DNA from: an uncultured Candidatus Saccharibacteria bacterium
GTDB taxonomy: Bacteria; Patescibacteriota; Saccharimonadia; Saccharimonadales; Saccharimonadaceae
Assembly (NCBI GenBank): GCA_946537195.1
Contig: CAMNFE010000002.1
Coordinates: forward strand, 1-57,689
Length of the DNA: 57,689 nt
Direction: 5' to 3'
A model generated the notes under the pieces. That model was not told the DNA's origin. It saw nothing but the letters and a program-made list of their open reading frames with translations, and ran no database searches. A program made the position numbers and the translations under genes. Below, in pieces: positions 1-23,905 of the stretch. Numbering within the stretch: the first letter of the stretch is position 1; the number at the start of each line of letters is the position of its first letter.

Positions 1-55
1 GAGCGACTGGTTCGCAATCAGTAGGTCAGGAGTTCGAATCTCCTACACTCCACCA
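1..55 (+). tRNA. tRNA-Ala (anticodon CGC), 3' part only, CCA encoded
   Basis: Anticodon stem-loop ACTGG-TTCGCAA-TCAGT, T arm AGGAG-TTCGAAT-CTCCT, 3' ACACTCC-A-CCA; 5' end lies outside the window. U70 is compatible with G3:U70 of tRNA-Ala. Confidence 0.8.
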
Positions 56-59
56 TTTA

Positions 60-85
60 TAAAGGCCATCTGGCCTTATTTTTAT
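60..85 (+). terminator. rho-independent terminator
   Basis: AAGGCC-atct-GGCCTT followed by ATTTTTA. Confidence 0.6.
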
Positions 86-147
86 ATCCATAAAGCTTCT
101 GCGAATACTTCTTTTGCTATAATAGTAATAGATAATAGGAGCATCTC

Positions 148-705
148 ATGTCGATAGAATTCAAAAGAAGAAAAACTGACACTGACGAGCATACCCACAT
201 TTCAGATGATTACGAAAAAAATACTTTTATCCCTCCATTCAACGCCGATCAAGCCAGAAGATTATCTGACGAAAAACGGGCTCTGATGGAAGCTCAAAGC
301 AGAGACGTAATTGAAGAAAGCAAACGCCGAACTATGGCAGATCTAGAGGCTATTACAGCCGCCTCCGAAGACGAAATGCGAGAACGGCAATTAAAAGCTG
401 AAAAAGACCAAATCGCTACCCAACAATCTCTCGGTAATAGAGGATTAGAAACACTCATAAAGCAAAGTCAAGCACCTTCATTCGTGGAGTTGATGACGCA
501 ACGCGGCATTCAAAGAGACAAAGAGCGCGAACAAGAACAGCAGCATAGAAACGAAGAAGAGAGTCACCGACAAGCAGAAGAAGCACACATGCGCCAAGAG
601 CGCGCCTCCGCACAACATCGCAATATGTACGACGATTTGACGCCATTCGAAAAATTGATGATGCAGCGCGCAAAAGAATCCGATAAATCCGAATTTGACT
701 CTTAA
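148..705 (+). CDS. hypothetical charged, E/R/Q-rich (coiled-coil-like) protein
   Basis: 185-aa ORF with SD (aggag) and upstream TATAAT. Confidence 0.7.
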   Translation: MSIEFKRRKTDTDEHTHISDDYEKNTFIPPFNADQARRLSDEKRALMEAQSRDVIEESKRRTMADLEAITAASEDEMRERQLKAEKDQIATQQSLGNRGLETLIKQSQAPSFVELMTQRGIQRDKEREQEQQHRNEEESHRQAEEAHMRQERASAQHRNMYDDLTPFEKLMMQRAKESDKSEFDS

Positions 706-709
706 ATCG

Positions 710-1411
710 CTATACTCCGTCAGCCTTCAAAAGCAACACATCTCTCCTATTTTTTATAGCCCCATCGCAAGTAGACAACATCACATATTTTTCTGCACCA
801 GTATTTTCTCTTTTTATTAGGGCATTATCAATTATCTTTTTAATAACGCTCATGCGATTGTGGCTATATTCTAGGTTATAAATTTCCCAATCATTCGCCT
901 TAACCTCGGCGTAAGCTATTATCGAATAATGTATCGTTTCTTGTGTTCTTTTTATTATTGCCTTCCTATGCTCATCGAAAAACTGACGATTAGCAAATTT
1001 TTGTATGTTCGAAAACATTTCGCCATTCCCCATCCTGTGCCCATAAATTACCGAGAAAGTGTCACTAAAATCATTATTGTTCCGATAATCCAAGAATAAG
1101 CTGCCTGCTGTAGCAAAATCTCCTTTATAATTCCGATTTAAAAACCAGCTATTGTCATTACTTTGTACCACAGGATAATTTATATTCGTATCCATAACTT
1201 CTAGTCATGCAATCGTATATTCACTATCTTCACTAATTTCCTCAAACAGCGCCTCGTTGTTATCATCGCCTACTAGCTCAATCAAACCTCTATCTATTAC
1301 TGAGCTATTTGATACTAATAGTAGATCCACAATCGCATACATACCAATAAATAAGATCGGAAATAATATCGAAAATAATAAAAGGTCTAAAAACCTATCA
1401 ATCCAGCGCAT
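710..1411 (-). pseudogene. class B-like sortase interrupted by one in-frame TGA (1205..1207)
   Basis: ORFs 1205..1411 (TM anchor) and 710..1195 (catalytic domain) are in the same frame, separated by TGA CTA GAA GTT ATG. Catalytic His (YGHRM), Cys (LSTC) and Arg (RRDVLL) are retained. Paralog of 18813..19535. Confidence 0.75.
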
Positions 1412-1695
1412 TAAAAACCTCGTACGCTTAGTTCGGCTATTACTTTTCCTCGAATCTCACCGCTATAGCCATCACCATATATAAACGTCTCTCCATCCAT
1501 CTTCAAGAGCACATCACCCGCTCCGTAATCTTTACAAACCCTACAAAACAAGAGTAAATCGCCGTCAACATTGCCGTAACCACGCATAACGCCAAACAAT
1601 ATTCCGAATAATACATATCCAGCTAAAGTGATGAAAATACCTTTCAAAAGAAGGCGCACCCACCCGCGCCATTTTTGTTCTTTTATTTTGAGCAT
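1411..1695 (-). CDS. short signal-peptidase-I-like (SipA-like) pilus accessory protein, no catalytic boxes
   Basis: TM segment plus DGDLLLFCRVCKDYGAGDVLLKMDGE and GEIRGKVI, resembling 19525..20058. Confidence 0.5.
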   Translation of the reverse strand: MLKIKEQKWRGWVRLLLKGIFITLAGYVLFGILFGVMRGYGNVDGDLLLFCRVCKDYGAGDVLLKMDGETFIYGDGYSGEIRGKVIAELSVRGF

Positions 1696-2765
1696 TTTGT
1701 TTTTCGTTGTTTTTTCTTATTTACATGAACTATTGCCAAAATCATTCCCGCTACACCTAAAGCCAATACGTACGGCATCACATTCGTTACTATACCAGTT
1801 AATACGTTTCCTTCCTTATGATTCAAGAAATCGACCTTATTGCTCGATGCGCCTACTTCGGCCGAAATAGTTTTAGTCTCCGAAGTATTACCCGCAGTTC
1901 CGTCAACATATTGCGTATAACCGTTCGCGTCTACTTCTTCGATACTGTACTTAACCCCAATTGGCATCTGGTTATTATTACCGTCATACCCAATATAAAC
2001 CGTCTGGCCGTGTTTTAGATAAATATAGTCGTCTTTACCTCCTACCGTGATTGTATTGTCTGTTGTAATAGAAGCGCCATTATAGTCGACTACACTATCC
2101 TGACCAAATACCGTAAAGCTATCGCCTTCTTTCGCCCCATTAATGACGACTTTATATTTAAAATAATCGTTTACGTTTGCTAAATTACCACTAACCGTAT
2201 TAGTTACTTCTATTCGATTCCTCTGCGCAGCCGATTCAAACACAGCATTAGTTTTATCTCCAGTATCGTGATTTCTAACTTGCTCTGCCATCGTTGCAAT
2301 ATATTCATTAGTTGGCCTTCCGTCGCTATCGAGTTTATTTCTCACGCTTACATAAAAGTAATACTCTTTTTCACCGTCTATTGGATAATTAATCGGATCT
2401 TCGGAATCAATTTCGCGTACAATGAACTTATAGTCACCCAATGCCGAAAACACTGCGTCCGTCAAATGCACTCCTCCGGTAGATGATACGTCGCCATTAG
2501 TGTCAGGAGCCCCAGAAACGGCTATCCAAAAATTGTTCGATAATCCATTAATAACCGCCGGATTACTACTATCTTGGGTTAAAGAATATTGGAACATATT
2601 ATCGACTTCATTTGCGGCACCATGCACAATACGCTCCACCTTCATTCAGCTAGTCGTATCTGGATTGCTTCCCAATGTTGTTTCGATTGCATTAGCCCGA
2701 AAAGGCGCCATTAATGCGGCCATCATAAAGCTACACAATGCACCATACTTAATAATCTTTTTCAT
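1683..2765 (-). pseudogene. Gram-positive (Spy0128/FctA-like) pilin interrupted by one in-frame TGA (2646..2648)
   Basis: SD cggaggtaaaATG, signal peptide MKKIIKYGALCSFMMAALMAPFRANA, TGA, then 320 open codons ending with sorting signal NVLTGIVTNVMPYVLALG...KKKQRK. Confidence 0.7.
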
Positions 2766-2856
2766 TTTACCTCCGTTATTTTTGTATTTTTTCATCAAAA
2801 AATCATGGTCCAGATTTCATATTTACCTCCAGTTAATTAATACCTTAAATTTAGAA

Positions 2857-2886
2857 CAAAAAAGCACCCTGCTAAAGCATGAGTGC
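2857..2886 (-). terminator. terminator downstream of the GT2 gene
   Basis: GCAC..GTGC hairpin followed by TTTTTT on the minus strand. Confidence 0.5.
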
Positions 2887-2888
2887 GT

Positions 2889-4511
2889 TTATTTCTTGAC
2901 TGCTTTTTCTGTCACGTCAAACTTTTCCATATATAATGCCAGCAACAATCTCGTCTGCGAATAAAATGCACAAGCTGACGAATAGATAATTGCTATCAAC
3001 GGCGCAATTATCCACTGCACTGCCATCCATATCTTTTTACTCTTCCGATAGCGCTTCGGCCTTGGCGGCAACATTTTCAACGAAAGAATTAACGAAATAA
3101 ATAAGCCAATCGCAGCAATTGTCTGAATAATACTTACCACTTGCGGCAAACTATGCGACAGTAAATCTCTTGAATAATAATGGAAGATCAGCGGTATCCA
3201 ACCACCGAATGCAATGATCGGCGCCATCGCGGCCAAGGTTACGTGGCCATCAAGCAAGCGAATAAACTTCGGAATAATCACGCTCCATTTTACCGTCCTC
3301 TTCTTCGAGAACATATAGCTACCGACATACGCAACATCACTCGCGCCGTAATCCCATCGTCTCAACTGTACCCACTGCGCCTTCAGTGTTCTCCATAAAG
3401 TACTCGACAGTACCGCATCCTGGTAGATTGGTGCTCGAATCGGTAATACTTCATAGTCTCCATCAAAATAGAACAGACTGCGCCAATATTGATGGCCATC
3501 CTCTACAATCGTGCGTACACTCCAGAAATCCATTTCCACTAATGCATCAAGCGACTGAGAGTGAGAAGCAAAATTACGCAACATATGCGGACGCATCGTA
3601 CAAATTAAATTCCAAAACGAGTTCGTTGATGCTACCACGCGCGTTACTGCCGGAGCATCCCAAATATTATTCGTAAACAAAGAAATTGGCTGGTAGCTTA
3701 GACGCTTTCTGTCTTCATGCACAATATATTCATAAGCCACAACATCGAAATAGCACTTATCTGGCTTATTATCGCAGTCCAGCGTCGTTACAATTACATC
3801 GCTAAATTTAATACCCTTTTCTTTTACGTAATCTTTCAAAATACGTCCAGCATTCGTAATATTACCGCCCTTACCGATAACTTCATTTTTTATTCCATCT
3901 GGATGTTTTGCTAAAATAAAGTGCCCAAACTTGTTTTTGTAGTTTTTCTCTAGGGTTTTCGCGACATTTTCCGCTTCCGGACCACCTCTCTCTTCGTAGG
4001 CAATCATCACTATCATTTGATCCTTTGGGTAAGTCGTCTTGAGCAAACATTCCATTGTTGGCACCAAAACATCCAAAGTTTCATTGTACATTGTGACTAT
4101 TACGGCATGATAGATATCTTTAGGCTTAGGAAAATAACCGTCCTCCGCTGCTGCCACCATGCATAAATTGCGCAGATGCTGGTCATATTCATAGGCATCG
4201 CTTTTTGTGCCCGCTAATCTATCGTAACTATCCTGCGCATTGCCAAGCTCCTCTACGCGTTTTCGCCAATTCACGCGTTGGCATCTTTTCGTCATATTGA
4301 AACCCTGAACCGTTCTAAAAGCAATTCCAACGGCCTTTACGAGATTAATAATAACAATCAATAAAATATAGCACGCTCCTAACGCCGAATTAATGGCCGA
4401 AAGGACAAACATCAAAATCAACATGCTATAGCTTAGCAGCGCAGGCAAAACTTCGAAGAAACGATACAGTGGCTTACGTTTGCCCACCGGTATCTCAACA
4501 ACTTTCGACAT
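2889..4511 (-). CDS. membrane family 2 glycosyltransferase
   Basis: N- and C-terminal TM helices, DCDNKPD and QLRRW (QxxRW) motifs. Confidence 0.8.
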   Translation of the reverse strand: MSKVVEIPVGKRKPLYRFFEVLPALLSYSMLILMFVLSAINSALGACYILLIVIINLVKAVGIAFRTVQGFNMTKRCQRVNWRKRVEELGNAQDSYDRLAGTKSDAYEYDQHLRNLCMVAAAEDGYFPKPKDIYHAVIVTMYNETLDVLVPTMECLLKTTYPKDQMIVMIAYEERGGPEAENVAKTLEKNYKNKFGHFILAKHPDGIKNEVIGKGGNITNAGRILKDYVKEKGIKFSDVIVTTLDCDNKPDKCYFDVVAYEYIVHEDRKRLSYQPISLFTNNIWDAPAVTRVVASTNSFWNLICTMRPHMLRNFASHSQSLDALVEMDFWSVRTIVEDGHQYWRSLFYFDGDYEVLPIRAPIYQDAVLSSTLWRTLKAQWVQLRRWDYGASDVAYVGSYMFSKKRTVKWSVIIPKFIRLLDGHVTLAAMAPIIAFGGWIPLIFHYYSRDLLSHSLPQVVSIIQTIAAIGLFISLILSLKMLPPRPKRYRKSKKIWMAVQWIIAPLIAIIYSSACAFYSQTRLLLALYMEKFDVTEKAVKK

Positions 4512-4877
4512 CTATCCTTCTCCGAGAATGCTCATCAAGAAGCGCAATGCGATAATTGTAATCACCATGCTTACCCCCAAAAACAATCTAGCAATGTCTT
4601 TTCCACGTTTAGTAAATAATCTTGCACATAGTAGCGTGTGGCCCACACCTAACGCTACCGCGATAATCGAAAAAGAAATCAAATACCACCAATCGCTCTG
4701 TTCGTAACCGTTACTAATATCCGAGTAGCGAGCCCAAATTTTTGGACGTGAAGAATTCAAATTTACAATCGGCGTCAAAAACAACCACAAATTAAGCAGA
4801 AAATTAACTGCCATCCACCATAACAAGCCGCGGTCTTTTTTCCAGATCGCCTTATAATCTTCGGCTAACTCTTTCAT
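4512..4877 (-). CDS. small multi-TM membrane protein
   Basis: 121 aa, several hydrophobic helices, abuts the GT2 gene. Confidence 0.65.
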   Translation of the reverse strand: MKELAEDYKAIWKKDRGLLWWMAVNFLLNLWLFLTPIVNLNSSRPKIWARYSDISNGYEQSDWWYLISFSIIAVALGVGHTLLCARLFTKRGKDIARLFLGVSMVITIIALRFLMSILGEG

Positions 4878-4927
4878 AGCTTTGTTCTATTCTACCATAA
4901 ACGGCAAAAACTCGCACGATTCAAGCG

Positions 4928-6148
4928 TTAATATCTTTTGATAACACTGAAAGCAACTAATCCACCAATTGCAGCAATAACGCCGCCAGAAATACATCCC
5001 CACATTACAGCGTCTTTATCGATTTCGTCGGCTTCTTGTTCTGGATTATCTGCAAGTTTAGTGTCAGAAAGAATGTTTTCCCCTTTTGCCTCATCTTCAT
5101 CGACGTCACCATTTTCAAGAATACGTACAGCTTTGCTCACAGTGACAACATTGTCGGATGTATTATTAGCGCCATTGCCAATATTTGTTGCGCCCCAACC
5201 AGCAGTCGCATTCTTAATCTTTCCGTCTGAAATCTTAATATTAAGTTTTGCAGCGGAACTGTAACCGCTCTTATCCGATCCAGTGCCAATTGCTGCACCG
5301 CCCAGCTTTTCTTCCTCACTACTTTCGTAGCCGTGAATATTTTCAAAGCTGCCGCCAGTTATAGTAATGTCAACACTTGCGCTACCTCTACCGCCGCCGA
5401 TACCAGCTGCGAAAGCACCGCCCTGCACTTCATTAAGTTTTCCGCCAGAAACCTCAATATTTGCACTAATATTATTACCACCACCAATACCGGCGCTGCC
5501 ATTACCGCCTGTTGCCGATATGTCACCACCTTTAATCACGATTTTTCCTGGCTGCTGTTTGAAAATATCAAGGTTCTCTTCGCCCATACCGCCGCCAATA
5601 CCAGCACCACCATTTTGCGCCTTTGCAATAATTGTGCCACCTTCAATCATAATTTCGCCATTCATTGCGTTAGCATTTTTCGTGCCATTACCGCCAATAC
5701 CGGCACCACCCTCAGCGCCACCCGTAACATTAAGAGTGCCATCACCAGAAAGCTTTAAGATGGCCATATTAGAATCACTCTTATAGCCAACGCTAATTCC
5801 AGCTCCCGTACCGTATCCAGCAACTGTATTATCGCCCTCTAATACAATCTCCGCTTTTACGCCGCTATCAATAATAATAGCCGAACCAGTCTTCGACTTT
5901 ATACTTACGTCCTTTAATACAATTTTAGAATCACCGTTAATAATGATTGGCGCAGACGATTCTCCTGAAAAGATTACTTCACCACCACTTACAACTATCG
6001 TATCGTCTACCGAAAGAAAGCTTCCACCACTTTCGCCACTTGTAATCTCATATCCTTTAACCGAATCAGCATTTACATTAGTAGCAAATGCAGTCGCAGC
6101 AAAAACGGTAAATAGTACACCGTAAAAAGCCCTAGAACTTCTTAACAT
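4928..6148 (-). CDS. secreted, membrane-anchored repeat protein (likely beta-helix/beta-solenoid)
   Basis: Signal peptide, repeated GGAGIGG units, C-terminal TM AVMWGCISGGVIAAIGGLVAFSVIKRY; ATG at 6148 preferred. Confidence 0.7.
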   Translation of the reverse strand: MLRSSRAFYGVLFTVFAATAFATNVNADSVKGYEITSGESGGSFLSVDDTIVVSGGEVIFSGESSAPIIINGDSKIVLKDVSIKSKTGSAIIIDSGVKAEIVLEGDNTVAGYGTGAGISVGYKSDSNMAILKLSGDGTLNVTGGAEGGAGIGGNGTKNANAMNGEIMIEGGTIIAKAQNGGAGIGGGMGEENLDIFKQQPGKIVIKGGDISATGGNGSAGIGGGNNISANIEVSGGKLNEVQGGAFAAGIGGGRGSASVDITITGGSFENIHGYESSEEEKLGGAAIGTGSDKSGYSSAAKLNIKISDGKIKNATAGWGATNIGNGANNTSDNVVTVSKAVRILENGDVDEDEAKGENILSDTKLADNPEQEADEIDKDAVMWGCISGGVIAAIGGLVAFSVIKRY

Positions 6149-6251
6149 ATACTCACACACTCCTTTTCCTAATAGCTATTTAAGCACAAGCCAATATAAA
6201 AAACAAGCAAACATTCCTATTTACATTTAAGTCCAAAAGCTATAAAATAAA

Positions 6252-6274
6252 TTGAAAATCATTCCCAAATTCAA
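6252..6274 (+). promoter_or_regulatory. candidate Fur/Zur operator
   Basis: TTGAAaatcattcccaaaTTCAA dyad between a TATAAA box and the regulator start. Confidence 0.35.
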
Positions 6275-6279
6275 GAGAT

Positions 6280-6684
6280 ATGACAAAGCAAAATAAGTAT
6301 CATACAATTAATCGAGACTACTTTCTCCAAACAGCTCAATCTTTTCGCAAGCCTTTTACCGCTAAAGATATAGCCGCAAAACTAGAAGACAACGAAAACC
6401 CAATGGGAACAAGCACTATTTATCGCTTTCTCGAAGAATTCTGTGCCGACGGTACGCTTCGAAAGACCATCGGTAGCGATAATACGGCTGAATATTTCTA
6501 CCTTAAACCGTGCGAAAACGATAATCACTGTTATTTAGAATGCGAAAAGTGTCATCATATTTACCACGTCGACTGCAAGCATCTACGTGGTTTCTCTAAA
6601 CATATCGCCAAAAAACACTTTTTTGAGCTATCCAGCAATAACCTTACTCTAACCGGTATCTGTGAGCATTGTCGGGAATCTTAA
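6280..6684 (+). CDS. Fur family metal regulator (probably Zur)
   Basis: Winged-helix STIYRFLEEF, CEKCHH and CEHC zinc motifs, adjacent znu operon. Confidence 0.85.
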   Translation: MTKQNKYHTINRDYFLQTAQSFRKPFTAKDIAAKLEDNENPMGTSTIYRFLEEFCADGTLRKTIGSDNTAEYFYLKPCENDNHCYLECEKCHHIYHVDCKHLRGFSKHIAKKHFFELSSNNLTLTGICEHCRES

Positions 6685-6686
6685 TC

Positions 6687-7664
6687 ATGAAAACCATTCT
6701 TAGAATAATCTTTATTTTAGCGCTTCTCGGAATCTTCTCGACCATCTTTTTCTTCCCTATCAGCGAACAGCAACCCGAGCAAAAGGAAATCAAAATTGTA
6801 ACTACCATTTTTCCTGCGTATGATTTCACTAGAACTCTCAGCCAAGACACCAATGTAAACGTCTCCATGCTTTTGAAACCCGGGTCTGATCTACATAGCT
6901 ATGAGCCTAGCCCTCAAGATATTATTAAAATCAAAGAGGCTGATATCTTCATTTATAACGGTGGCGAATCCGAATCGTGGATCGACGACATTCTAAAAGA
7001 AATTGATCAAGACAATGTTGTAACTTTGCGCATGATGGACGCCGTAGAGCTAAGGCCCGAATCTTCAAATAATATCATTGACGCCGAAAAAGAAGAGAAA
7101 GAATCGGAATCCATCGAGTATGACGAGCATATTTGGACGAGCCCCAAAAATACCATTAAAATCTCCGAAAAAATAGCTCAGGCTCTTATTAATCGTAGCC
7201 CTGACGATACTTCCGTCATCCAGCGTAATCTCGATAAGTTCAAAGAAGAACTCAATGCTCTTCATAAAGATTTTAAAAAATTAGCAAAAGAAAAAACTGG
7301 CACTCTGATTGTAGCAGATCGTTTTCCTTTCTCTTACTTCGTAGCTGATTACGACCTCGACTATCTAGCCGCCTTCCCTGGCTGCGCCGAACAAGCGGAA
7401 GCGTCCGCAAAAACAATCGCAGAGCTTGATAAGGCAATCAAGCAAAACCCCGAAAAAGTCATATTCACCCTTGAGTTGTCTAATGCGAAAATAGCTCAAA
7501 CTCTCGCTAAGAATAATAAAGCTAAAATTCTAACCTGGCATTCCGCGCACAACATATCACAAAAAGATTTTGACGATAACATTACTTATCTCGAAATAAT
7601 GAAAAACAATCTAAATAACCTAAGTGAGGCGCTACATGACCGTCCTGAAAGTAACGAATCTTAG
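6687..7664 (+). CDS. znuA: zinc/manganese ABC transporter substrate-binding protein
   Basis: LKPGSDLHSYEPSPQDI, EAEASAKTIAEL; N-terminal TM. Confidence 0.85.
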   Translation: MKTILRIIFILALLGIFSTIFFFPISEQQPEQKEIKIVTTIFPAYDFTRTLSQDTNVNVSMLLKPGSDLHSYEPSPQDIIKIKEADIFIYNGGESESWIDDILKEIDQDNVVTLRMMDAVELRPESSNNIIDAEKEEKESESIEYDEHIWTSPKNTIKISEKIAQALINRSPDDTSVIQRNLDKFKEELNALHKDFKKLAKEKTGTLIVADRFPFSYFVADYDLDYLAAFPGCAEQAEASAKTIAELDKAIKQNPEKVIFTLELSNAKIAQTLAKNNKAKILTWHSAHNISQKDFDDNITYLEIMKNNLNNLSEALHDRPESNES

Positions 7665-8301
7665 CCTCAAACATGGCCAGCACTATGTCTTCCAAAATAT
7701 CAATTTCGAGCTCAACCAAAACGATTTCCTATGTATTGTAGGCCCAAACGGATCAGGCAAAACTACTCTCTTGAAGTGCCTTCTTGGAGAAATTAAGCCC
7801 AACACCGGAAAGGTCATCTTCGACAATCATCAAAGCCAGCATATTGGCTATTTACCTCAAAGTCAGGTCAACAATCCGATTTTCCCTGCCTCAGTTTATG
7901 AAATTGTTGCTTCCGGCACCCTAAATCAAATTGGACTCTTTGCGCCATACCCAAAACAAAAAATCGCTAGTATCCTAAAGACCTTGCATATTGATGACTT
8001 TGCAAAAAGACAATACAATACCCTCTCCGGTGGTCAACGCCAACGCGTACTATTAGCTAGAGCTTTAGCGGCGAGCGAAGGCCTACTTATTCTCGATGAG
8101 CCATCAAATAATCTCGATTATTCTTCACGCCAAGACTTCTATGCCACTCTTAAAAAACTCAACAAGACCACTACTATCATCATGGTTACACACGACCTCG
8201 ACCACAAGAATCTCCTCGGAAACAAAATTCTTTCCCTAGATCCAAAGCACGCCTTCTTTGGCGACACTAATGAATATGTCAGGAGAATCCATGCTCACTA
8301 G
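7636..8301 (+). CDS. znuC: zinc ABC transporter ATP-binding protein
   Basis: Walker A GPNGSGKTT, signature LSGGQRQR, Walker B LLILDEP; ATG at 7636. Confidence 0.88.
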   Translation: MTVLKVTNLSLKHGQHYVFQNINFELNQNDFLCIVGPNGSGKTTLLKCLLGEIKPNTGKVIFDNHQSQHIGYLPQSQVNNPIFPASVYEIVASGTLNQIGLFAPYPKQKIASILKTLHIDDFAKRQYNTLSGGQRQRVLLARALAASEGLLILDEPSNNLDYSSRQDFYATLKKLNKTTTIIMVTHDLDHKNLLGNKILSLDPKHAFFGDTNEYVRRIHAH

Positions 8302-16999: not shown

Positions 17000-17974
17000 T
17001 CACTCCAAATCTCGCTCATTAAATAGAATCTTATAAATATAGTAGTAACCATATTTCATTCCACCACCATTGAACAGGACGTAAGCTTCACCATTAATGA
17101 AATAGATGCCTTCCATCTCCATCTTAGGCCGACCAACGATAAATGCGCGCATCGTTTTTGTCTCTAAATCAAATTGATAAATCACGTTCTGATTTTTTCG
17201 TATCCCAACCGCACGCGCTTCGTTTCGACGATATGCCCAATTAACTAAGTATAATTTACCGTTATAATAGGCTATATCTTGATTAGTCAAATCAGTTGCC
17301 ATTTCGCAAGAATCAATAACGTATTCTAAATTACCGTCTATCATAACCAGCACATCATTGTTCCTTATTGCAAAACAGCCAGCATCGTCAATATATGCTA
17401 TACCATTACCAACGCATGGCAATTTTTCCAGACTAATCTGACGAAAATTAGTGGCATCAATTCGCGCAAGACTATCGCATTCGCCATATTCATTACGAAT
17501 TCCCACCACTACAAATTCATTATTTATATCGTCATAGGTCATTCCGTTCGCATGCCCAAGTTCGAAAGTTGTGCTATTGCTAATGAAATGATTGGTTACA
17601 TCTTCCAAACTTTGCCTATCTATAATGATGAGCTTATTGTTAGTTTCTCCTCCCTGCTCTAAAGTGCCAAAAGGTCGCCCAGCAATCACAAAATAGTCAT
17701 CCGTAACCACTAAACTTTGTACCGAACTAACACCTACAGGTTTCGTGCCTTCGAAAACTAATTCTAAGGACAATGATGTCATCTCGTCGACCGTAATCGA
17801 CGCCACTGGTATTGCTTTTTTAATTGCGTTATATCTTCCAGCTACGCAAACAGCAATCAGCAGCAAAATAAACAAAATAGATAATCTTTTTTCCTTCAAA
17901 TGGCATCCCCCCTTACGGAGTGATCGGTTTTTAAGGTGCTCCTTTATTGTCGCATCTTTAACGACAGAGGTCAA
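17000..17974 (-). CDS. membrane-anchored beta-propeller-like extracellular protein
   Basis: N-terminal TM, repeated strands (GNGIAYIDD, IAYYNGKLYLVNW); true start may be TTG near 17898. Confidence 0.6.
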   Translation of the reverse strand: MTSVVKDATIKEHLKNRSLRKGGCHLKEKRLSILFILLLIAVCVAGRYNAIKKAIPVASITVDEMTSLSLELVFEGTKPVGVSSVQSLVVTDDYFVIAGRPFGTLEQGGETNNKLIIIDRQSLEDVTNHFISNSTTFELGHANGMTYDDINNEFVVVGIRNEYGECDSLARIDATNFRQISLEKLPCVGNGIAYIDDAGCFAIRNNDVLVMIDGNLEYVIDSCEMATDLTNQDIAYYNGKLYLVNWAYRRNEARAVGIRKNQNVIYQFDLETKTMRAFIVGRPKMEMEGIYFINGEAYVLFNGGGMKYGYYYIYKILFNERDLE

Positions 17975-18812: not shown

Positions 18813-19535
18813 CTATTCGTTATAACCCGTCAAGAGCACGACCCTCTTCGAGGTGTCCGAATAACAGGTCGAAAGGAGTAAGAGCCTGTCAGTCTTAACA
18901 TCTCTCGTATACCTGCCGCGCTCTTTGAAAAATTTCAAGACCGCTTCTGGCTTATTCGCATAAGTATCTACGTCATATATCTCTTGCGTATTATTATCAA
19001 TAATAGCGTAAGATAATACTTCTAAGTCATAGACATCATTTTCAAGATAATATTTGCCCTTCGTATGACTATCGAAAAATGTCTTATTGTTAAACATATT
19101 CAAATAGCCAAACATCGAATGACCACTCATGTTGTGACCATAAGCAACGACATATTTATCTTTAGCTAGCTTATTGCGATAATCTGCAAAAATGCTGCCA
19201 GCCAACGATGATTCTTTTTTAAAGTTATGATTCAAATAGAAGGTATTGTTACTAGTCTGTGTTACAGGGTAATCAATATCTGTATTGTCGATTTTAATCC
19301 ATGCTACAACATCCGGATTTGTTTCCTTCAATTTTTTCACACGGTCAAAATCGTCCGCGTCGGCAATTATTTTAGCCGCTTCCTCAATCTCTTTTCCGCT
19401 TTCAATTACGGAAAATGAGTCAAATATGGCATATATTCCAATGATCGCTATTACGGCAAATAGAAGTATAAACAAAACACTCAAACAACTATTGAAGACG
19501 TTTAAAACATCAACAACTTTTATCTTAGATCGCAT
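18813..19535 (-). CDS. class B-like sortase (pilus locus B)
   Basis: NPDVVAWIKIDNTDIDYPVTQ, YGHNMSGHSMF, LLSTCYSDTSKRVVL; ATG at 19535. Confidence 0.88.
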   Translation of the reverse strand: MRSKIKVVDVLNVFNSCLSVLFILLFAVIAIIGIYAIFDSFSVIESGKEIEEAAKIIADADDFDRVKKLKETNPDVVAWIKIDNTDIDYPVTQTSNNTFYLNHNFKKESSLAGSIFADYRNKLAKDKYVVAYGHNMSGHSMFGYLNMFNNKTFFDSHTKGKYYLENDVYDLEVLSYAIIDNNTQEIYDVDTYANKPEAVLKFFKERGRYTRDVKTDRLLLLSTCYSDTSKRVVLLTGYNE

Positions 19536-20058
19536 GAGTACGAAATACCCCAATCACTTTGCCTTTTATATTATCTTTGAAAATACCGCCATACGAACGC
19601 GAATCTCCAAATTCTTCACGATTGTCTCCCAGTATAAAGAATTGATCTTTGCTGAGTTTATAAGGGTACGAAAAATCAATCTTTTCCGGGAAAGCATTCG
19701 TTCCATATGAAGTTACATCCTCTACACCGCCGTTAACCGCGATGTTCTTTTTTTCGTCAACATCTACGACATCGTTATTTTGAGCGACTATACGCCCAAC
19801 ATGATCTACGCCATTTACGGAGTAAATTACTACGTCGCCAATGCCATAGTTGTCATCCAGTCTATAAATTAACGATAAATCACCATCCGATATTCTCGGG
19901 TGCATGATGTTACCATCTACGCGCTCAAAACCAAATAATCTAAAGAGCAATATATACATTACTAGCGTGAATAGAGCAATTTTTATCAAAATTGATATGA
20001 TTACTCTACCCACCCCAGCTTCAATCTTTAAAGATTTTTTGTTTTTAAGGTCATCCAT
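19525..20058 (-). CDS. signal-peptidase-I-like protein lacking catalytic Ser and Lys (SipA-like)
   Basis: Box B VDGNIMHPRI (no Ser), box D HVGRIVA (no Lys), box E GDNREEFGDSRSYG retained. Confidence 0.75.
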   Translation of the reverse strand: MDDLKNKKSLKIEAGVGRVIISILIKIALFTLVMYILLFRLFGFERVDGNIMHPRISDGDLSLIYRLDDNYGIGDVVIYSVNGVDHVGRIVAQNNDVVDVDEKKNIAVNGGVEDVTSYGTNAFPEKIDFSYPYKLSKDQFFILGDNREEFGDSRSYGGIFKDNIKGKVIGVFRTHAI

Positions 20059-20061
20059 GAA

Positions 20062-21036
20062 TTATTTTCTTGCAGACTTAGCATAGAATACTACAGCACC
20101 AGTAGCTACGAATGCTAACAAGATGTATGGCAATACGTTGAGAACTACACCAGTACCAACTGGGCTAGATTTCTTGTTTACATATGCAAACGTATTGTTT
20201 GCTACATCGGACGAAATAGTACGCTGGCCAGTAGATTTAGTGCTGCTCAAGCTGCCATTAATATAGGTCTGATAATCGTTATCTTCCTCAGTAATCGTGA
20301 AAGTAGTACCAGCATCTATCTGTTCAGTACCATTAGTTGCCTGACCAATTGTAACGGTTTCTCCGTGCTTTAAGGACACAGAACAGTCGGTTTGTGCAGC
20401 ACAAGTGCTACCACGACCAGTCGTAACATTTGTTATACGATAGTTAGTTCCACTAGTACCATTAACATTCACCGTAAAGTTGAAAGAAGCGTTCGTATCG
20501 CCACCTTTACCAGCAACGGTCTTCGTAAGCACAATATGGCTTGGAGATGCGCCCTGGTCATAAGCAAACAATAAATCAGAAACCTTATTACCGCCGCTGT
20601 CTTTAATGTATGTCAAATGAGCAATATCGCCAGTAATATTATCATTTCCATCAACCGTATGTTCTACCGCAAAATAAAGATCAAAATATTCAGATCCTAG
20701 CGTACTATAGTTATTGATACCAGAAGTAGTAACTCTTACGACGGATTCTTTTGGCGTAGAGTCGTTAAAGTATAAATTACTAAGGTTTATAGTCTGACAA
20801 GCCCCGTCACCAGTTAACGAGAAACTGGTAATATTTCCGTTCATATTCGAATCTTGTCTTGTAAATGTATACTGCGCTGAATCCGTGCTGGTAGCTGGCG
20901 TGATATCCTGGCAAAGCTGAATCGATTCCGGATCGGTTACATAGACAGTATCAGCATAAGCTGCACCTTGTAGACCGACGACGCCTGCAATTGACGCTAC
21001 AAAGGTCAACCCCGTTAATATTATTCCTTTTTTCAT
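20062..21036 (-). CDS. Gram-positive-type major pilin
   Basis: Signal peptide, isopeptide-type pilin domains, sorting signal SPVGTGVVLNVLPYILLAFVATGAVVFYAKSARK. Confidence 0.8.
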   Translation of the reverse strand: MKKGIILTGLTFVASIAGVVGLQGAAYADTVYVTDPESIQLCQDITPATSTDSAQYTFTRQDSNMNGNITSFSLTGDGACQTINLSNLYFNDSTPKESVVRVTTSGINNYSTLGSEYFDLYFAVEHTVDGNDNITGDIAHLTYIKDSGGNKVSDLLFAYDQGASPSHIVLTKTVAGKGGDTNASFNFTVNVNGTSGTNYRITNVTTGRGSTCAAQTDCSVSLKHGETVTIGQATNGTEQIDAGTTFTITEEDNDYQTYINGSLSSTKSTGQRTISSDVANNTFAYVNKKSSPVGTGVVLNVLPYILLAFVATGAVVFYAKSARK

Positions 21037-21091
21037 TTTATATTTTCCTTTCGTTTATTATTTTTTAACTAAATTAAATATTGTTATTTTT

Positions 21092-23905
21092 TCAACGTCT
21101 ATCTCTATATCGCCTCCTCCTTCGGATATAAATTACGAACGCTGAAAAAATCATAGTAATTATTGCGAACGGCACAGGAGAAAGATTGACTTTAACGCCG
21201 GTACTAATCTGTCCGCTCCTCTTATTTTTAATGTTGACGTACTGCGCAGTATTAGGCGCGATATATCCAACATGATTAACCGTATCGTATCCTGTCGTAG
21301 AACTATACGAAACCTCATAGTCGCCAGATGTGGAAGGATCTTCTATAACCGAATACTGACAATTCGAATCAATATTATTAAACGTATAGCTTTGCCCCGA
21401 CATGAGCGAAACGGTCTGAGTCTCATTCCAACAATAGAATGTTACATTTATATCGAAATATTTATTTGTGTCACCAAGGTTTCCAGCAACAGAGTTTGTC
21501 ACTGTTAATGTGCCTAACTCTTCACTTTGAGCAATTACTTTGTTTGTAATAGTAGTAAACGTCGGATCAGTAGAACTAGTTTCATAATTCGTCTGCTCAT
21601 AATTTTGAATACTTTCCTCGGTCCATGTATAGTTTATTTCTTCGCCGCTGTTATATATCGGCAAATCTGTAACATAGTTATACCAATCGTTCTCCTCGTT
21701 CAATACTACTGGGTTATCATAATTACAGACACCATCCGCACACAAATAAACAAGAATGCTAGTAGGCCTCAATCTTAAAGCATCACTGTCGTCATCCCAA
21801 ACTTTACGTACAGATCGCCAGGTTGTATCCGTTGCATGCGAGTTTGTTACAGTAATGTGCCCATAGCCATCATCACTATATGACACCGTATAGCCATCTG
21901 GCACTACATCCTCCTCGACGGAATACGTATAAGCTGCTCCCTCGCTATCAGTAGAAGGTAAACCATAGAATGTATAGCACCAGTTATCACTCTCAAAAAG
22001 ATCAGCAGATAATAACTCACCCAAGTCATCGTAAACAGTTTGTCCATCTCTCAATAAATTAACCGTCACATAATCAGGCCTTAAGTAATCTTGATTAGAA
22101 TTATCGTCCCATTCTTTACATACTTCGATGTTTATTTCTTCGCTCGTATATGTATTATTAATGATTACCGAATCGCCATCGTTATATATTACTTCCACTA
22201 ACACACCACCATCATCTTCGAGCGAGACATTGACGTAAACATAGTGTGATAAATCATCATAAGTGACGCCAAATAAATAAGTATCATTCTCTACTATGTT
22301 ATAGGTATAACTTCCTACCATATCATCCGTAAATGTTATGCCCTCAAAGAAGAAATTATATGAATTACCGTTCGTCGGTTCAATTTCTACCGTATTTGAC
22401 TCTGGCATCGGAGCTCCTTCCGTTTCAGCTTCAAGTGTAAATCTAAATAGATCACCCGGCATAAACTCGCGTCCTGTAAGATTTTTAACACCACTTATTA
22501 TTGCTACCGCAGAACTGCCTCCGTCGCTATGATCATTCCAGAAAAAGTCAGAACCCGGCATCTCCGATATACGCCCATGAATCACGTAATCATCATCAAC
22601 AGTTTTCGGAAATGCACTTTCGCCTTCGTCTTCAGCCGCTTCAACGCGCGACAAATACCACCCATTTGGAATATTAATTTCCTGAGCCGTATACTGTACA
22701 CCAACTTCCAAACCTTCAATTTCTACACAGCTATCTCCAAGCAATTGAAAATTAGCTACTCCATTTTCAAAAACTATCTCCTCTTCTCTTTCATCTTCCC
22801 ACCAAGCTTGGAATCTTCCCGATGCACCAGCTACGGTAACTTTAAAATCAAACATTTGATCGCCCGAACCTTCACCGTCACCTCCGCCGATGGCACCGCC
22901 CCCTACAATATATTTACAAATAAAAAGCGTGCCAGCATGTGAAACATCGTAAATATTATCAAGCGTCATAGACAGCTCGGCTTCATCCTCACCATCTCCT
23001 TCGTCTTCAACAGTCGTCGAAAAACAATAGTTAATAGTTTCATTTTCAGTATCATTAAAATGGAATTTTGCCTTATGCCCGTAGCCAGATACGCCAGCAT
23101 ACCGTTCGGTAACACAATATTGAACATCCTTTTCGAGCACAATCGAATAATTACTAGTATATGTCCCCGCCTGCGACCCAACATTTGCCGTTGAGATTGG
23201 TATAACTAACCTTGGAAATTCTTCACCGTTTTCATCCGAAAACGTTAATTGCATATCGGGGTTAAATGTTCCATTAAAATTTTCTGGAATTATAAAATTC
23301 TTTTGAATATTTAGAGTAACCGTTTCTTTTCGTTCACAGTTATTTCTCACTTCTACATTGATGTCATCGTCTGTCTTATATTGATATGAAAATTGACTTA
23401 ATCTCGTTTCATAGTGTGGCGGCAGCTCATCATTCTCTCCAATAATGCCTTCGCCAACCTCATCGCCATTCACGGTTGCATAAAAATCAGCCGTACAAAA
23501 CACATCTTCATCCAATTGAGCTTCAGCGATATTTTCTGTAACAGTAGCTAATATATTCGTAGGTATATTTTTAAATGTATATCCTTCGTCGCCCTTTAGA
23601 GAAATATTTAATTTACCATTTTCATCGGTAGTTACGGTAGTATTGCTCCCATTCGGCCTCGTAGCACTAATGGTCTGGTTTGAATATGGCATATACTCAT
23701 CACCATCCATAAATTCAATCGTAAAATTAAAATCTACCCCCTCCCCCTCATTACCAGTCAACTTCTTCGTCACAGTAATATCATAAACACCGTTATCCGC
23801 AAAAGATCCGCGAACAACGGCCGAAGCACCAAAAATAATCAACGCCACAGCCAAGAACAAAACTGCGCGTAGAGACTTATTCGCTCTAGTAAGCCTACGC
23901 CTCAT
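21092..23905 (-). CDS. large Cna-B-repeat pilus adhesin/tip protein
   Basis: Signal peptide, repeated Cna-B/FctA-like domains (KEWDDNSNQDYLRPDYVTVNLLRDG, KVWDDDSDALRLRPTSILVYL), C-term QISTGVKVNLSPVPFAI..RRRR. Confidence 0.85.
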   Translation of the reverse strand: MRRRLTRANKSLRAVLFLAVALIIFGASAVVRGSFADNGVYDITVTKKLTGNEGEGVDFNFTIEFMDGDEYMPYSNQTISATRPNGSNTTVTTDENGKLNISLKGDEGYTFKNIPTNILATVTENIAEAQLDEDVFCTADFYATVNGDEVGEGIIGENDELPPHYETRLSQFSYQYKTDDDINVEVRNNCERKETVTLNIQKNFIIPENFNGTFNPDMQLTFSDENGEEFPRLVIPISTANVGSQAGTYTSNYSIVLEKDVQYCVTERYAGVSGYGHKAKFHFNDTENETINYCFSTTVEDEGDGEDEAELSMTLDNIYDVSHAGTLFICKYIVGGGAIGGGDGEGSGDQMFDFKVTVAGASGRFQAWWEDEREEEIVFENGVANFQLLGDSCVEIEGLEVGVQYTAQEINIPNGWYLSRVEAAEDEGESAFPKTVDDDYVIHGRISEMPGSDFFWNDHSDGGSSAVAIISGVKNLTGREFMPGDLFRFTLEAETEGAPMPESNTVEIEPTNGNSYNFFFEGITFTDDMVGSYTYNIVENDTYLFGVTYDDLSHYVYVNVSLEDDGGVLVEVIYNDGDSVIINNTYTSEEINIEVCKEWDDNSNQDYLRPDYVTVNLLRDGQTVYDDLGELLSADLFESDNWCYTFYGLPSTDSEGAAYTYSVEEDVVPDGYTVSYSDDGYGHITVTNSHATDTTWRSVRKVWDDDSDALRLRPTSILVYLCADGVCNYDNPVVLNEENDWYNYVTDLPIYNSGEEINYTWTEESIQNYEQTNYETSSTDPTFTTITNKVIAQSEELGTLTVTNSVAGNLGDTNKYFDINVTFYCWNETQTVSLMSGQSYTFNNIDSNCQYSVIEDPSTSGDYEVSYSSTTGYDTVNHVGYIAPNTAQYVNIKNKRSGQISTGVKVNLSPVPFAIITMIFSAFVIYIRRRRRYRDRR

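What the first reader, a model, noticed from the sequence alone, without database searches (positions are those of the whole stretch)
710..2820. Sortase pilus locus A carries three in-frame TGA codons and no other lesions
On the minus strand, leader ORF, pilin and sortase each contain one TGA in an otherwise open frame, with no frameshift, TAA or TAG. Elsewhere TGA is a real stop: pilT, pilD and znuB end in TGA overlapping the next ATG, and 17000..17974 ends in TGA before a terminator. A genome-wide code change is therefore unlikely. This is either a young pseudogene cluster or UGA readthrough/suppression limited to surface genes. Active-site residues and the sorting signal downstream of the TGAs are intact.
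Basis: partly seen in the sequence, partly recalled or inferred. Interest (0 to 1): 0.75.

Follow-up and report, generated by a model that had tools for sequence, protein, structure and literature searches.

The report
UGA-gated competence and pilus genes
A genus of rumen Saccharibacteria keeps the stop codon UGA inside its DNA-uptake and pilus genes, where evolution treats it as tryptophan, while UGA still ends ordinary genes, so a stop codon appears to act as an on/off gate for a whole set of genes.

Summary
Two of the three reported TGAs are real: codon 40 of the pilin and codon 69 of the sortase. The "leader ORF" is spurious. They are neither recent mutations nor decay. The same pilin TGA is present in eight same-genus species at 47-64% protein identity. 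The sortase carries one TGA at either of two tryptophan sites. The pattern extends beyond the window to ComEC, ComFC (37 of 40 genomes), ComM, a UvrD-type helicase and an LTD surface protein: a natural-transformation and pilus gene set in ruminant-gut Saccharibacteria. Across 154 sites, aligned orthologs show UGA as Trp (+301 bits; next best +33). Selection is purifying on both sides of the UGAs; real TAA/TAG interruptions were not found in these genes. UGA remains a genuine stop: about 15% of long ORFs end in it and RF2 is intact. Only tRNA-Trp(CCA) was found. Internal UGAs cluster near the 5' end (all 31 UGA-bearing comEC genes have one in the first 65 codons), and these genes never terminate in UGA. 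Other genera of the family almost never show this in comEC. Best explanation: a codon-gated regulon, switched by conditional UGA-to-Trp readthrough. The decoding step and its trigger are inferred, not shown.

The parts
1683..2765 (-). pilin-like surface protein (DUF7601 domain, signal peptide, C-terminal membrane anchor) with one internal in-frame TGA
   Evidence: Translation; Pfam PF24547; eight genomes including this one carry the same TGA
2646..2648 (-). internal TGA, pilin codon 40, context AGC TGA ATG
   Evidence: TGA invariant in 8 genomes
710..1411 (-). class B sortase with one internal in-frame TGA, ends in TAG
   Evidence: TIGR03064 and PF04203
1205..1207 (-). internal TGA, sortase codon 69, at a site that is Trp in all 27 orthologs with a sense codon there; context GCA TGA CTA
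1411..1695 (-). 94-aa conserved ORF between pilin and sortase, no family; no TGA here, but TGA at a Trp site in the G030 ortholog

Best explanation
The internal UGAs are functional. In this genus a set of genes for natural transformation (ComEC, ComFC, ComM, a UvrD/HelD-type helicase) and for one sortase pilus, including pilin and sortase in this window, carries in-frame UGA codons that must be read as tryptophan to give full-length protein, while UGA is still the stop codon of ordinary genes. The UGA, usually within the first 65 codons, acts as a translational gate: normally ribosomes stop there; when UGA readthrough rises, all these genes are switched on together. The most likely decoder is the ordinary tRNA-Trp(CCA) competing with RF2, helped by a condition (RF2 shortage, tRNA modification state or stress) that is not identified. 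Shown by comparison: conservation, Trp identity, purifying selection, restriction to this gene set in the DNA examined, early position, avoidance of UGA terminators. Inferred: that UGA is actually translated, the decoder, and the regulation.
For: Conserved TGAs: pilin in 8 genomes, sortase, ComM, ComEC, helicase in 20 of about 24 near-full-length orthologs, ComFC in 37 of 40. UGA = Trp: 154 sites, W +300.7 bits, F +33.3, Y -12.9, including sites where every other ortholog has W. dN/dS about 0.05-0.3 in most close pairs, similar up- and downstream. Specificity: in 675 kb of the own genome against 792 kb of G017, mid-gene conserved in-frame stops occur only in comEC, comM, pilin and sortase. Gate position: 31 of 31 UGA-bearing comEC genes have one in the first 65 codons; UGA 36 early/27 late against UGG 16/122, p=3.5e-11; helicase p=4e-4. 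In one subclade comEC begins Met-Lys-UGA or alike. UGA-bearing genes end in TAA/TAG 50 of 50, against 15% TGA genome-wide. RF2 intact with SPF and GGQ. +4 base A or C in 91/116 internal UGAs against 87/174 terminators, p=1.3e-6. In E. coli, UGA readthrough inserts mainly Trp and reaches ~80% in one context under stress (PMC11126739).
Against: No RNA or protein data. Up to five or six UGAs in one comEC (G001, G037) would need efficient decoding, more than ordinary readthrough gives. The UGA +4 bias towards A/C is weak against UGG codons in the same genes (p=0.036), and depletion of +4G is not what PMC11126739 predicts. Orthologs are not independent, so the p values are too small. ComM lacks UGA in G038 and G030, and a few basal species lack it in comEC. 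DprA, another competence gene, has none in G000. One helicase copy (G010) looks decayed.
Confidence: 0.68

Rival explanations
1. UGA is tolerated, not selected: this genus reads UGA as Trp at a modest constant rate, and weakly expressed genes drift between UGG and UGA with no regulatory meaning.
For: UGG/UGA interchange between close relatives at the same site; competence genes are expected to be weakly expressed; sites turn over between clades.
Against: Strong 5' bias of UGA relative to UGG in the same genes; 37 of 40 comFC carry at least one; invariant UGA in eight pilins whose UGA-free homologs have S/T/I there; no other weakly expressed gene affected in the DNA surveyed; four to six UGAs per comEC in some species.
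Confidence: 0.17
2. A dedicated UGA decoder is switched on: a non-canonical suppressor tRNA, or editing of the tRNA-Trp anticodon from CCA to UCA.
For: Would explain many UGAs per gene and avoidance of UGA terminators in the set; phages gate late genes with suppressor tRNAs (PMC10879173).
Against: No tRNA(UCA) by ARAGORN in G000 and G017 stretches, by Rfam tRNA model, or by pattern across 45 genomes (control). G017 lacks some expected tRNAs, so its assembly is incomplete; editing cannot be seen in DNA.
Confidence: 0.12
3. A-to-I editing of the mRNA turns UGA into UGI, read as UGG, as in sexual-stage genes of Fusarium.
For: Gives Trp at the right sites and would be stage-specific; functional analogue known in fungi (PMC11156358, PMC5496914).
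Against: Editing of UAG would also give UGG, and UAG/UAA dominate in fungi with U at -1 (abstract of PMC11156358); here only UGA occurs, with no fixed neighbours and no conserved hairpin at the pilin site.
Confidence: 0.02
4. The locus is a pseudogene cluster or the TGAs are assembly errors.
For: MAG data; nonsense codons in otherwise open frames.
Against: Same class of codon, same genes, in dozens of independently assembled species; purifying selection on both sides; no real TAA/TAG in these genes; UGA sits at invariant Trp sites.
Confidence: 0.01

Closest known systems
Stop-codon recoding of late/lytic genes in crAss-like and other phages (Borges et al. 2022, cited in PMC10879173)
   Same: A stop codon is kept as a sense codon in one functional gene set, in a cell where it is otherwise stop, and is proposed to time expression.
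   Different: There a phage-encoded suppressor tRNA reads the codon (e.g. UAG as Gln); here a cellular chromosome, UGA as Trp, no suppressor tRNA found, transformation and pilus genes.
Conditional UGA readthrough by near-cognate tRNA-Trp in bacteria (PMC11126739)
   Same: UGA read as Trp, condition-dependent, RF2 present, ordinary genetic code.
   Different: Known cases are errors or single genes; here conserved UGAs mark a coordinated multi-gene set across a genus.
A-to-I editing of premature stop codons in sexual-stage genes of Fusarium (PMC11156358, PMC5496914)
   Same: Conserved in-frame stops that must become Trp, in stage-specific genes.
   Different: UAG/UAA edited in mRNA by a tRNA deaminase; here only UGA, in bacteria.
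Genome-wide UGA = Trp codes (Mycoplasma; patescibacterial family JAKLIH01, PMC13092985)
   Same: UGA = Trp; JAKLIH01 is in the same phylum.
   Different: Here UGA is still a terminator, RF2 is intact, and only a few genes use UGA as Trp.

Membership tests
Genome-wide UGA=Trp code (table 4) | UGA no longer terminates; in-frame UGA throughout the genome | tested here: not met
   14.6-16.2% of long ORFs end in TGA; only the competence/pilus genes have conserved in-frame TGA
Genome-wide UGA=Trp code (table 4) | tRNA-Trp(UCA), or loss or change of RF2 | tested here: not met
   RF2 model match in all 45 genomes, intact in four read; no tRNA(UCA) found
Programmed UGA readthrough | conserved in-frame UGA with protein-level selection on both sides | tested here: met
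Programmed UGA readthrough | amino acid inserted fits a near-cognate tRNA (Trp for UGA) | tested here: met
   profile score W +300.7 bits over 154 sites
Programmed UGA readthrough | weak-termination context or stimulatory RNA structure | tested here: inconclusive
   +4 A/C enriched; no conserved structure at the pilin UGA; other sites not folded
Programmed UGA readthrough | full-length product shown | not testable with these tools
   needs proteomics or reporters
Phage-type stop recoding by suppressor tRNA | cognate suppressor tRNA encoded | tested here: not met
   control 71; non-canonical tRNAs not excluded
A-to-I stop-codon editing | UAG/UAA sites and U at -1 preferred | tested here: not met
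   only UGA at Trp sites; no fixed context
Selenocysteine UGA | Cys/Sec at the site in homologs and a SECIS element | tested here: not met
   Cys scores -199 bits against Trp +301; Rfam found only a tRNA in window 1-8000
Pseudogene | relaxed selection, mixed lesions | tested here: not met
   low dN/dS; only TGA

The most novel reading that the evidence does not exclude
A codon-gated regulon in a cellular organism: natural transformation and a sortase pilus are switched together not by a sigma factor but by changing the meaning of UGA from stop to tryptophan, with the gate codon placed near the start of the genes and kept for that purpose.
Probability: 0.65. Interest if true: 0.95.

Novelty: new variant of a known kind. 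Interest (0 to 1): 0.9.

Why it matters
The genetic code is normally described per genome. Here the same codon, in the same cell, appears to be stop for almost all genes and Trp for one functional programme, across many species. That would make decoding itself a regulator of DNA uptake, and gives a testable route to how competence is controlled in Patescibacteria. It also means gene callers and genome-wide code predictors may miss or truncate ComEC, ComFC, ComM and pilins in this genus, so these bacteria may be wrongly scored as lacking transformation.

Tried and rejected
Leader ORF as a third TGA: spurious. First six-frame survey was swamped by antisense shadows; replaced by a frame-validated one. 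L077:4904 TGA near tmRNA: no coding ORF, dropped. Weak tRNA in G017 C2:142403-142473: degenerate Ala(CGC)-like piece, not a suppressor. tRNA(UCA) pattern hits are tRNA-Leu(CAG) and tRNA-Ala(GGC) out of register. Special conservation of tRNA-Trp: identical between G000 and G017, but so are several other tRNAs, so no argument. 4-bp anticodon-stem tRNA-Trp as decoder: the stem has 5 bp, G24 and A9 are normal. RNA structure at the pilin UGA: none. Reinitiation at the ATG after the pilin TGA: most orthologs have ATA/ATT there. Genome-contig scan with the pilin: no hits.

Full report
What is in the window. The pilin (1683-2765, minus) and the class B sortase (710-1411, minus) each have one in-frame TGA, at codons 40 and 69, and no other lesion. 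The supposed leader ORF is not a gene, so there are two TGAs, not three. The genome is an 836-kb MAG, 86% complete, of a ruminant-gut Candidatus Saccharibacteria genus. A second pilus locus (18813-23905) has no internal TGA.

The TGAs are old. In the same genus the pilin TGA is present at the same place in eight genomes including this one; the seven others are 47-64% identical to it in protein. The sortase has one TGA either at Trp-69 (this genome, G017) or at Trp-175 (G003, G019, G023, G030, G038, G039), with UGG at the other. A pseudogene would not do this, and sequencing error is excluded by the number of independent assemblies.

Other genes have it. A frame-validated comparison of 675 kb of the own genome with 792 kb of G017 found mid-gene conserved TGAs only in comEC (two), comM, pilin and sortase, and no mid-gene TAA/TAG that were not gene junctions or plain errors. 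Comparison with G001 added comFC, a UvrD/HelD-type helicase with UGA at the W of GDDWQSIY, and an LTD-domain surface protein. Genus-wide searches gave in-frame TGA in comFC of 37 of 40 genomes, comEC of 27 of 45 by the matched stretch and 31 of the 36 read at base level, the helicase in 20 of about 24 near-full-length orthologs, and comM in about 16 of 37 (a few lie upstream of the true start). These are the DNA channel, the single-strand handling protein, a branch-migration ATPase and a helicase: the natural-transformation machinery, which in cultured Saccharibacteria depends on comEC (PMC10633639). DprA of this genome has no TGA. As a control, comEC was searched in other genera of the family: of more than 100 listed matches one (G232) has a TGA. 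The feature belongs to this genus.

UGA means tryptophan. Scoring 154 internal UGAs against the residues of the other orthologs gave W +300.7 bits, F +33.3, Y -12.9, all others negative. Examples: helicase column 692, UGA in 6 and W in 22 of 22; sortase column 78, UGA in 3 and W in 27 of 27; comEC column 368, UGA in 4 and W in 30 of 32; ComM codon 205, UGA or UGG in close relatives; ComFC PRPP motif DDA[UGA]TTG in G017 against DDVWTTG in G001.

The proteins are under selection. dN/dS in close pairs is about 0.05-0.3 in most comparisons and similar before and after the UGA. Internal stops counted in the five gene families: 138 TGA; the nine TAA/TAG all lie near or upstream of the real comM start.

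UGA is still a stop. It ends 14.6-16.2% of long ORFs in three genomes, sometimes where a relative has TAA, and RF2 is present in all 45 genomes, with SPF and GGQ in the four read. But genes with internal UGA never end in UGA: 50 of 50 end in TAA or TAG, while 6 of 52 orthologs without internal UGA do end in it. That is expected if UGA is read through when these genes are expressed.

Position suggests a gate. All 31 UGA-bearing comEC genes have a UGA in the first 65 codons, and UGA is early far more often than UGG in the same genes (36/27 against 16/122, p=3.5e-11); the helicase is alike (19 of 22 genes; p=4e-4), pilins have it at codon 39 or 40. In a subclade with shorter ComEC the protein begins Met-Lys-UGA, Met-Asn-UGA or Met-Ile-UGA. 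The sortase shows no early bias. Species are not independent, so p values are indicative.

How it may be read. The only Trp tRNA found is an ordinary tRNA-Trp(CCA) with 5-bp anticodon stem. ARAGORN, an Rfam tRNA search and a tRNA(UCA) pattern over 45 genomes found no suppressor (control 71). After internal UGAs the next base is A or C in 91 of 116 cases, against 87 of 174 at genuine UGA terminators (p=1.3e-6), but the difference from UGG codons in the same genes is slight (p=0.036). This fits competition between RF2 and tRNA-Trp(CCA): UGA-C is a weak terminator (PMC5289835), and E. coli UGA readthrough inserts mostly Trp and reached about 80% in one context under stress (PMC11126739). The five or six UGAs in some comEC genes need high efficiency in the permissive state, so an unknown helper is likely. 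mRNA A-to-I editing is unlikely because UAG never occurs at these sites.

Verdict. UGA read as Trp in these genes: about 0.95 likely. A regulatory gate for transformation and pilus genes: about 0.7. Decoding by tRNA-Trp(CCA) against RF2: somewhat better than even. No publication in the library searched combines Saccharibacteria, UGA and readthrough, and genome-wide code screens such as PMC8629427 are, in my judgement, not suited to finding gene-restricted recoding. Limits: no expression or protein data, incomplete MAGs, 81% of the own genome surveyed.

Noticed in passing
window 18813-23905: Second sortase pilus locus (class B sortase, signal peptidase I, DUF7601 pilin, 937-aa Cna_B/FctA pilin ending in TGA) without internal TGA; a natural ungated comparison for locus A.
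   Followed up: partly
L077 5068-5434 (minus), next to comM: tmRNA gene lies directly beside the UGA-bearing comM gene in this genome; ribosome rescue next to a recoded gene may or may not be coincidence.
   Followed up: no
window 1-55 and loci L088, L100-L102, L104, L106: A tRNA-Ala(CGC) gene neighbours pilus locus A in several species, cut by the contig end here.
   Followed up: no
L318 11227-12684 (+): Lamin-tail-domain surface protein with three in-frame TGAs in G001, two in the motif GASYA[TGA]FNDG[TGA]RQSYAVTPG; a further candidate member of the set.
   Followed up: partly
window 1411-1695 (minus): Conserved 94-aa protein of no known family between pilin and sortase; its G030 ortholog has a TGA at a Trp site.
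   Followed up: partly
L124 2403-2473 (minus): Degenerate tRNA-Ala(CGC)-like piece in G017, perhaps an attachment site of an integrated element.
   Followed up: partly
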